A DNA stretch of 35,178 nt from Chloroflexota bacterium (GTDB taxonomy: Bacteria > Chloroflexota > Anaerolineae > J102). Numbering within the stretch: the stretch's first letter is position 1; each line of letters opens with the position of its first letter. The notes below the pieces were generated by a model, which was not told where the DNA came from, made no database searches, and worked only from the letters and a program-made list of their open reading frames with translations. Location of the stretch: positions 1 to 35,178 of the forward strand of contig JAAENG010000540.1 of assembly GCA_024224665.1 (NCBI GenBank), read 5' to 3'. Made by a program: the position numbers and the translations under genes. This document shows positions 550 through 35,178 of the stretch, piece after piece.

Positions 550-767
550 CGACGCGTGCGGGAGAGAGCCGACCTAAAAAGCAGGTCGGACGCCGAAGGT
601 GCAAGCTGATCTGTTACCGGACAGAGCAGCCAATCTCTCAGGCAAAAAGGATCGTTCGCCGACAGCACTCTGGAGAGTTGGGCGTTTCAGCGCTGAACGC
701 CCACACCGAAGGGGGAAAGCGATGGTGCCATCACCGTTGCCAAACTCTCAGGTTTCAGGACAGAGTA
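550..767 (+). ncRNA. Tandem glycine riboswitch (two aptamers)
   Basis: Two aptamer signatures: GGAGAG...CGCCGAAGGTGCAAGC...ATCTCTCAGGCAAAAAGGAT...ACTCTGGAGAG, then CACCGAAGGGGGAAAGC...AAACTCTCAGGTTTCAGGACAGAG; directly upstream of gcvT. Confidence 0.95.
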
Positions 768-806
768 GAGAGCCGGGTTTCTATAACCCATTGGCTCTCT
801 TTTTTT
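768..806 (+). terminator. Rho-independent terminator of the glycine riboswitch expression platform
   Basis: GAGAGCC-GGGTT-TCTAT-AACCC-ATT-GGCTCTC followed by TTTTTTT; 5' arm abuts the 3' P1 strand of aptamer 2. Confidence 0.9.
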
Positions 807-22653: not shown

Positions 22654-22963
22654 ATGTCTGCATCGCCTTCTTTGAACCGACACGAGATAACCAAATACCT
22701 GCACCAACATGAGGATGAACTGAGTGGCCGTTATGGCGTTACTTCTTTGGCGTTGTTTGGTTCCGCTGCTCGCGATGAATTGAGTGAGAGCAGTGATATT
22801 GATATCGTTGTCAGATTTTCTACTCGAACCACATTTGACGCGTATTTCGATTAAAGTTCTTTTAGAAGATTTACTTGGGCGCGAAGTAGATTTAGCGACC
22901 GAACAGATGTTGAAGCCTCGCCTAAAGCAACGAATTCAGGGTGACTTGATATATGTCACGTGA
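22654..22963 (+). pseudogene. Frameshifted MNT-type nucleotidyltransferase (HEPN/MNT antitoxin-like) remnant
   Basis: GVTSLALFGSAARDELSESSDIDIVVRF...FDAYFD* then, in another frame, LKFLLEDLLGREVDLATEQMLKPRLKQRIQGDLIYVT; a 1-bp indel at ~22850 restores one continuous MNT protein. Confidence 0.8.
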
Positions 22964-23676: not shown

Positions 23677-23828
23677 AGTCGCAGTCCCTATTCGGTCCCG
23701 CAGTCTCATTCAGAATCGACGTGATCCAACGTGATATTGTGCCAGACTCCCTGACCTGCTATGATAATACGTGTAAATGAAAGTTAAGAAAATAACTCAG
23801 TAATGTAGCCTATGCGTTTGCGAGGCCC

Positions 23829-24009
23829 GCACCGGGATGAATTCCCGGTGCTACGTAACAGCGCCCCTTGAAAGGGGCTGATTTGACACCCAAAGTGTCA
23901 CAAAACGAGCCCATCGCCGAATTGATCCGGCGCTGTTTGCTAGCCGGGAGATTCACCCCCCGGCGGACCTGGCAAGAAAACATTACCGAAATAAATAATT
24001 AACCTTCAT
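23829..24009 (+). repeat. Five-hairpin structured element; terminal 50 bp repeated at window end in inverse orientation
   Basis: Stems GCACCGGGA/TCCCGGTGC (23829-23851), GCCCCT/AGGGGC (23863-23878), TGACAC/GTGTCA (23884-23900), CGCCG/CGGCG (23915-23932), GCCGGG/CCCGGC (23943-23964); 23960-24009 is the exact reverse complement of 35121-35170. Confidence 0.85.
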
Positions 24010-24036
24010 AAACACGTATTACTGAGAGGCCAACGT

Positions 24037-24267
24037 ATGCAGAAAAAATTGACGATTACTATTGATGAGGAAGTTTATAGAGGGTTGTATGACATCGTCG
24101 GCCCTCGCCGAATCAGCCGCTTCATTGAAGAGTTGATTCGGCCTTATGTTCTCTCTCCCGATCTGGATGCTGCTTATGAGCAGATGGCGCAAGAAGAGAA
24201 CAGAGAAGAGGAGGCTGTTGAATGGGTAGATGCACTTATTGGGGATGTAAAAAATGAAGCGTGGTGA
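24037..24267 (+). CDS. Antitoxin of MazEF-type module (ribbon-helix-helix-like)
   Basis: MQKKLTITIDEEVYRGLYDIVGPRRISRFIEELIRPYVL; overlaps the start of a MazF/PemK toxin. Confidence 0.85.
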   Translation: MQKKLTITIDEEVYRGLYDIVGPRRISRFIEELIRPYVLSPDLDAAYEQMAQEENREEEAVEWVDALIGDVKNEAW

Positions 24268-24586
24268 GATCTGGTGGGTCAACTTCGACCCATCCGTTGG
24301 CGGCGAAATCCAGAAGCAGAGACCGGCGGTAATTGTCAGCAATAACGCCTCAAACAGGCATCTTAATCGAGTTCAGGTTGTTCCACTGACATCGAACATT
24401 GGGCGCGTTTACCCTAGTGAGGCTCTTATCGAGTTTGATGGTCGAGAGGGCAAAGCCCTAGCTGATCAGTTGACCACCGCAAGTAAACGGCGGCTGGTTA
24501 ATCATGCCGGCAGAATTAGTCCAGATGAGATGCGGCGGATCGAGCAAGCAATACGCGTGCAACTTGGCCTCATTGCGAATCATTAA
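24254..24586 (+). CDS. mazF: MazF/PemK-family endoribonuclease toxin
   Basis: MKRGEIWWVNFDPSVGGEIQKQRPAVIVSNNASNRHLNRVQVVPLTSN. Confidence 0.93.
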   Translation: MKRGEIWWVNFDPSVGGEIQKQRPAVIVSNNASNRHLNRVQVVPLTSNIGRVYPSEALIEFDGREGKALADQLTTASKRRLVNHAGRISPDEMRRIEQAIRVQLGLIANH

Positions 24587-35120: not shown

Positions 35121-35170
35121 ATGAAGGTTAATTATTTATTTCGGTAATGTTTTCTTGCCAGGTCCGCCGG
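35121..35170 (-). repeat. Inverted second copy of the 50-bp tail of the 23.83-24.01 kb element
   Basis: ATGAAGGTTAATTATTTATTTCGGTAATGTTTTCTTGCCAGGTCCGCCGG is the exact reverse complement of 23960-24009. Confidence 0.98.
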
Positions 35171-35178
35171 AGGATGAA

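What the first reader, a model, noticed from the sequence alone, without database searches (positions are those of the whole stretch)
23829..24009. Five consecutive hairpins forming an unassigned structured element
Seen directly: five stem-loops in ~136 nt (perfect stems of 9, 6, 6, 5 and 6 bp) followed by an AT-rich tail, in a non-coding gap between yigZ and a MazEF-type pair. No protein ORF or riboswitch class I know explains it. Density and order of stems suggest a mobile structured repeat (MITE/REP composite) or an ncRNA. It ends 27 bp before the mazE-like start codon, so it could also act as that operon's leader.
Basis: partly seen in the sequence, partly recalled or inferred. Interest (0 to 1): 0.72.

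Follow-up and report, generated by a model that had tools for sequence, protein, structure and literature searches.

The report
Palindrome-splitting mobile hairpin repeat
The five hairpins are the core of a 233-base mobile DNA repeat, present in about 40 copies in this Chloroflexota genome, that inserts without duplicating its target into the exact middle of other palindromes; here it has split the control region of a toxin-antitoxin gene pair.

Summary
The hairpins are the core of one copy of a 233-bp non-autonomous mobile element (23777-24009) with 11-bp inverted ends (ATGAAAGTTAA / TTAACCTTCAT). The genome holds about 80 such ends (88 hits against 7 in the control), 43 matches to this copy, and a related subfamily. 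Copies sit at the exact dyad centre of unrelated palindromes with no target duplication (47 of 70 flanking positions complementary, P about 1e-13). Most targets are a GTAG-type REP, found empty 31 times and filled 13 times. Here the target is the conserved promoter/operator palindrome of a MazEF-like pair: the element splits it and would become a structured 5' leader. The five-hairpin core is a REPIN-like REP doublet that recurs in 108 of 296 genomes of the class. It lies beside 13 of 14 IS200-like (Y1/HUH) transposase genes and 0 of 14 control loci, and its stems covary strongly. The best reading is a palindrome-seeking miniature element whose core belongs to a Y1 transposase. That this enzyme also cuts the outer ends is inferred, because no autonomous partner with these ends was found. 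The kind is known (REPINs, haloarchaeal SMR-A, REP dimers inside palindromes); the combination is a new variant.

The parts
23777..24009 (.). complete 233-bp mobile element copy
   Evidence: sharp common boundaries in copies from many contigs of the same genome
23777..23787 (+). left terminal inverted repeat ATGAAAGTTAA
   Evidence: 88 genome hits of ATGRARGTTMA versus 7 for the reversed control
23999..24009 (-). right terminal inverted repeat (TTAACCTTCAT)
23764..23776 (+). left half of the split target palindrome ATAATACGTGTAA (overlaps the -10-like part of the mazEF-type promoter)
24010..24021 (+). right half of the split target palindrome AAACACGTATTA
23800..23806 (+). subterminal stem GTAATGT, pairs with ACATTAC at 23980-23986
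   Evidence: folds; same position in type B and G014 copies
23817..23828 (+). outer core stem (TTGC..GG..), pairs with 23965-23975
   Evidence: folds
23827..23966 (+). REPIN-like core module (covariance model R1 match, 98.8 bits; only match in the 35-kb window)
23829..23851 (-). hairpin H1 (9 bp), an inverted REP with CTAC foot (GTAG on the minus strand)
23863..23878 (+). inner hairpin h2
23884..23900 (+). hairpin TGACAC/GTGTCA, in a variable insert found only in the 233-bp elements
23915..23932 (+). inner hairpin h3 (family consensus GCCGGATTGATCCGGC)
23943..23964 (+). hairpin H4, a REP with CTAG (GTAG in relatives) foot
24037..24267 (+). MazE-like antitoxin gene
   Evidence: NF050104 23.5 bits, below its cut-off; 14 other class genomes carry homologues
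24254..24586 (+). MazF/PemK-type toxin gene
   Evidence: PF02452 97.7 bits
23059..23676 (+). yigZ (IMPACT family), upstream neighbour
   Evidence: TIGR00257 197 bits
35121..35178 (-). second copy of the element, cut by the contig end
7769..7803 (+). copy of the REP-like target repeat (TTGTAGTAAGCGCTTTAGC...) without insertion

Best explanation
This is a non-autonomous, palindrome-seeking miniature mobile element. Its core is a REPIN-like doublet: two inverted REP hairpins (H1 with CTAC, H4 with TAG feet) around a stem AACAGCG/CGCTGTT that holds two or three small hairpins. The doublet is wrapped in further inverted arms that end in an 11-bp terminal repeat. Shown: it is repeated in the genome; its ends are precise; it inserts with no target duplication at the dyad centre of palindromes, including the loops of its own relatives; its core is the repeat that accompanies a subfamily of IS200-like Y1/HUH transposase genes, one of which is in the same genome. 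Inferred: the single strand of the element folds; the Y1 enzyme, acting in trans, processes the folded strand; and it is joined into the tip of a hairpin formed by a palindromic target, probably during lagging-strand synthesis. At this locus the target was the promoter/operator palindrome of a MazEF-like pair, so the two operator halves are now 233 bp apart and the operon would have a long structured leader. Weakening of autorepression and an effect on translation are inferences.
For: Copies: 43 genomic matches, several 95-99% identical over the full 233 bp, plus a 72% identical subfamily; about 80 terminal-repeat hits above background. No target duplication and exact centring: REP-like target GTAGTAAGCGCTT|TAGCGC found 44 times, 13 filled and 31 empty; L121 has both flanks and joins exactly to the empty sequence. 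Junction complementarity over 7 copies averages 6.7 of 10 at the junction and 1.7-3.3 when shifted, P = 1.4e-13; a copy in another genus with different ends (L074) scores 8 of 10. Nested insertions at the centre of hairpin loops of kin: L114, L118, L135, L136. Transposase link: core model beside 13 of 14 TnpA loci and 0 of 14 antitoxin loci of the same class (Fisher P 4e-7); all 19 genomes with a close TnpA are among the 108 of 296 that carry the core (P 1.6e-9); L158 in the same genome has the core on both sides of tnpA. TnpA is IS200/IS605 by NF033573 and by similarity to the IS608 and ISDra2 type structures. Stems: 11 pairs with compensatory changes, covariation score 0.246 against 0.095 shuffled. 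Operator: ACGTGT-N3-ACACGT-type palindrome with a TATAAT-like -10 box upstream of most related antitoxin genes.
Against: No copy or Y1 gene with both TnpA and the ATGAARGTTAA ends was found, so the enzyme that acts at the outer ends is not identified. In relatives G012/G014 the same core rides in a MITE with other ends (GGGTGYGTCC) and what looks like a 9-bp duplication, so the core can be cargo. Two of nine fully flanked copies (L016, L017) are centred one base off. The window's operator spacer is 4 where relatives have 3. Known IS200/IS605 enzymes choose a short target sequence, not a palindrome centre. No transposition was observed, and the assembly is fragmented exactly at these repeats.
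Confidence: 0.6

Rival explanations
1. The outer 11-bp inverted repeats are recognised by an undetected transposase of another class (a classic MITE or SMR system), and the REPIN-like core is only captured cargo.
For: Core and ends are separable: G012/G014 carry the core inside a MITE with different ends and an apparent 9-bp duplication. No Y1 gene is bounded by ATGAARGTTAA. Haloarchaeal SMR-A elements with similar behaviour also lack a known enzyme (PMC3119063).
Against: No such transposase was found in the genome, though it is about 92% complete and fragmented. Zero target duplication is unusual for DDE enzymes. Elements in at least two genera keep both TIR and core together.
Confidence: 0.3
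2. The region is mainly a regulatory RNA leader of the mazEF-like operon, selected as RNA.
For: Lies between promoter half and start codon in the same orientation; very stable fold; stems covary.
Against: The same 233 bp occurs at dozens of unrelated loci. None of the 14 other loci with the antitoxin carries it. Covariation is shared with copies that have no such neighbour. No Rfam family matches at threshold.
Confidence: 0.06
3. Chance cluster of hairpins.
For: Short GC-rich stems do arise by chance.
Against: Fold z-scores -5.2 and -6.8, multi-copy, covariation.
Confidence: 0.005

Closest known systems
REPINs / BIMEs (REP doublets mobilised by REP-associated tyrosine transposases; PMC3116915, PMC2817692)
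   Same: Two inverted GTAG/CTAG-footed REP hairpins with a spacer, the whole able to fold as one hairpin; multi-copy, extragenic, near Y1 transposase genes.
   Different: The associated enzyme is IS200-like, not a RAYT by NCBIfam. The doublet is wrapped in extra arms with a precise 11-bp TIR. Insertion at palindrome centres is explicit.
A-type small mobile repeats (SMR-A) of Haloquadratum walsbyi (PMC3119063)
   Same: Short, non-coding, inverted ends not tied to a known transposon, no target duplication, insert within palindromes of other mobile elements, mobilisation unexplained.
   Different: Archaeal, about 110 bp; no REPIN-like core or transposase link reported there; exact dyad-centre insertion was measured here. 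No sequence comparison with SMR-A was made.
GTAG REP dimers inside palindromes (Anabaena variabilis GTAG-15; Thermomicrobium roseum GTAG-23; PMC3733652)
   Same: REP dimers nested in palindromic sequence; T. roseum is also Chloroflexota and has many copies of the target palindrome.
   Different: Described in passing without ends, empty sites or transposase; sequences not shown to be related.
PATEs / IS200-IS605 end-only elements (PMC3119063, PMC7290912)
   Same: No target duplication, terminal palindromes, core shared with IS200-like transposase loci.
   Different: PATEs lack terminal inverted repeats; this element has them.
TIRtrons / TIR-associated tyrosine transposases (PMC3733652)
   Same: Combination of inverted repeats, degenerate REP units and Y1 transposases.
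   Different: Here no Y1 gene is bounded by the element's own TIR.

Membership tests
MITE (non-autonomous TIR element) | Multi-copy, short, non-coding, with terminal inverted repeats | tested here: met
   233 bp, 11-bp TIR, 43 matches and about 80 TIR ends
MITE (non-autonomous TIR element) | TIR shared with an autonomous transposon in the genome | tested here: not met
   No TIR pair at transposon spacing around a gene among the 88 TIR hits; the assembly is incomplete, so this is weak
MITE (non-autonomous TIR element) | Target duplication typical of the cognate transposase | tested here: not met
   Zero duplication against paralogous empty sites and L121
REPIN/BIME | Two inverted REPs with GTAG-type feet and a spacer | tested here: met
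   H1-CTAC and (G/C)TAG-H4 across 33 non-redundant modules
REPIN/BIME | Association with a RAYT (REP-associated tyrosine transposase) | tested here: not met
   Associated enzyme is Y1/HUH but hits NF033573 IS200/IS605, not the REP_Tyr family; the RAYT-like gene in the genome (L161) instead is flanked by the target repeat
SMR-A (Haloquadratum) | Short TIR element, no target duplication, inserted within palindromes | tested here: met
SMR-A (Haloquadratum) | Sequence relationship to the haloarchaeal families | not tested
   No SMR-A sequence was fetched for comparison
IS200/IS605-derived PATE | Absence of terminal inverted repeats | tested here: not met
   11-bp TIR present
Known RNA family (Rfam 15) | Match at gathering score | tested here: not met
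   No match for the element or its relatives; weak scan gave only one hit, E 3.5

The most novel reading that the evidence does not exclude
A Y1/HUH transposase of the IS200 kind moves folded single-stranded REPIN-like elements specifically into the tips of hairpins formed by palindromic DNA. This mode of target choice would explain zero-duplication dyad-centre insertion, nested palindromes, haloarchaeal SMR-A and REP dimers inside palindromes, and would make operators of toxin-antitoxin and other autoregulated genes natural targets.
Probability: 0.3. Interest if true: 0.75.

Novelty: new variant of a known kind. Interest (0 to 1): 0.5.

Why it matters
How small palindromic repeats such as REPINs and SMRs spread, and how they choose a site, is still poorly understood. 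This family gives precise ends, filled and empty sites, two subfamilies plus relatives with different ends, and a candidate enzyme in the same genome, so the question becomes testable in vitro. It also shows a route by which a mobile repeat splits the operator of a toxin-antitoxin operon at its symmetry axis, because palindromic operators are the kind of site it seeks.

Tried and rejected
Rfam at gathering and at permissive thresholds: nothing. A dispersed autonomous partner sought through the terminal repeat: none. L128 turned out to be a copy interrupted by an IS with IS4-like transposase sequence (recognised by eye, not by a family search), and L124/L136 copies interrupted by a different MITE. 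Group II intron, IS110 bridge RNA and integron attC were considered and dropped from memory of their end features: element ends fit none of them; these were not tested with models. A first alignment (A1) contained a placeholder sequence that I had typed in and not taken from data, and one altered base in another row; it was discarded and not used, and the alignment was rebuilt from verified loci. A G-T versus A-C count to separate RNA from DNA selection (55 versus 26) was not used because strands had been chosen by model score. The motif count (8 of 18 close TnpA loci, 0 of 12 distant) was superseded by the covariance model, which finds weaker modules near some distant Y1 genes too. Laying out contig neighbours was not possible because many contigs end inside the repeat.

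Full report
Observation. The five stems reported at 23829-23964 and the AT-rich tail to 24009 are present. The sequence folds much better than dinucleotide shuffles as RNA (z -6.8) or DNA (z -5.2). No ORF or Rfam family explains it.

Repeat and boundaries. Searching the host genome (5.77 Mb, 628 contigs) with 23800-24030 gave 43 matches, 95-99% identical for the main set. Aligning with longer flanks shows sharp common ends: the element is 23777-24009, 233 bp, beginning ATGAAAGTTAA and ending TTAACCTTCAT. Two copies, L041 and L043, have the same length but only about 72% identity. The terminal motif ATGRARGTTMA occurs 88 times against 7 for the reversed control, and reading those places shows subfamily A (the window's), subfamily B (233 or 254 bp) and a decayed relative, L119. 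Many contigs end inside the repeat, and a second copy cuts off the right end of the window at 35121-35178.

Insertion mode. Flanks of unrelated copies are inverted copies of one another, centred on the insertion point: GAGCGCTG|element|AAGCGCTC, GGCGACATG|..|AATGTAGCC, ATAATACGTGTAA|..|AAACACGTATTA (window). For seven copies with both flanks, 47 of 70 positions are complementary at the junction, with 1.7-3.3 of 10 at shifted positions. The favourite target is a REP-like repeat, GTAGTAAGCGCTTTAGCGCTT, of which 44 were read: 31 are uninterrupted and 13 are filled exactly between CTT and TAG. L121 has both flanks and joins exactly to that repeat, so nothing is duplicated or lost. Copies also sit in the middle of hairpins of their own kin: L118 and L135 split GCCGGATT|GATCCGGC at its centre (for these the far flank is inferred from the parent sequence, because the contig ends). 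A homologue in another genus (L074) with different ends (ATGAATGTT...AACATTCAT) splits GCCGGATTGC|CGAATCCGGC. L016 and L017 are centred one base off.

Target identity. The REP-like target lies on both sides of a RAYT-like gene in the same genome (L161; NF047646 at 73.8 bits, cut-off 80), as expected for a REP family. The mobile element thus lands in the REPs of a different Y1 system.

Core. The 116-position core (H1, CTAC, AACAGCG stem, h2, h3, CGCTGTT, TAG, H4) is more widespread than the element. A covariance model from 11 verified sequences finds it in 108 of 296 genomes of the class, often in tandem arrays of about 120 bp (L163, L176). On the sequence-only MAFFT alignment 94.7% of cells pair, 11 pairs have changes on both sides, and the covariation score is 0.246 against 0.095 in shuffles; sliding the partners destroys it. 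A larger fitted set gives 960 Watson-Crick cells against 721 +/- 9 shuffled. The fold is therefore conserved, but these data do not say whether as DNA or RNA.

Transposase link. Four Y1 genes were found in the genome. One, an IS200/IS605 TnpA (NF033573; similar to IS608 and ISDra2 type structures), has the core on both sides (L158). Among 14 loci found in named Chloroflexota records with this protein (some are the same places as), 13 carry the core nearby, while 14 antitoxin loci of the same class carry none (Fisher P 4e-7). All 19 genomes with a close TnpA are core-positive. Relatedness of genomes is not corrected for, several of these loci supplied sequences to the model, and the score cut for 'close' (about 150 bits) was set after seeing the list.

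This locus. In most of the 14 other genomes with a homologue of the antitoxin, a promoter-like TATAAT overlaps a palindrome of the ACGTGT-N3-ACACGT type just upstream of the ATG. The window has exactly those two halves, separated by the element. A transcript from the upstream half would begin near the element's left end and carry it as leader; this is inference. The spacer of the joined operator would be 4 here against 3 in relatives, which is unexplained. The local promoter match is weak and at background frequency.

Mechanism and limits. Zero duplication, hairpin-tip targeting, a single-strand-foldable body and linkage to a HUH transposase fit single-strand transposition in trans. What is missing is the enzyme for the outer ends: no TIR-bounded gene was found, and in G012/G014 the core also occurs in a MITE with different ends and an apparent 9-bp duplication. 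The cargo model therefore stays at about 0.3.

Known context. REPINs (PMC3116915), SMR-A of Haloquadratum (PMC3119063) and REP dimers inside palindromes in Anabaena variabilis and Thermomicrobium roseum (PMC3733652) are the nearest kinds. None is met on all tested features, so the element is filed as a new variant that works like them.

Noticed in passing
window 660-773: Glycine riboswitch (RF00504, 55.9 bits) upstream of the gcvT/gcvP-like genes.
   Followed up: no
L143-L157 and L124:2254-2310: A second, unrelated high-copy MITE (ends TGTATTAGG...CCAATACA) that seems to make unusually long target duplications of about 15 bp, and is itself found inserted in copies of the 233-bp element.
   Followed up: partly
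L069, L050, L075 (relatives G012/G014): The REPIN-like core rides inside a different MITE with GGGTGYGTCC ends and an apparent 9-bp target duplication.
   Followed up: partly
L121 compared with L041: Subfamily B exists in a 254-bp form that differs by a small extra palindrome (CGACCGC..GCGGTCG) in the loop of hairpin H4, so palindromes nest within palindromes.
   Followed up: partly
L128:1-331: A copy of the element interrupted by an insertion sequence with IS4-like transposase sequence; the same IS ends recur in L157 and L159.
   Followed up: no
window 22654-22963: A MNT-type nucleotidyltransferase reading frame that appears to be broken by a frameshift near 22850.
   Followed up: no
L039 (C173:1-343): Several truncated, nested pieces of the element next to one another, possibly a recombination or assembly product.
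   Followed up: no
window 23764-24021: The joined operator halves would have a 4-base spacer where the palindromes of related loci have 3.
   Followed up: partly
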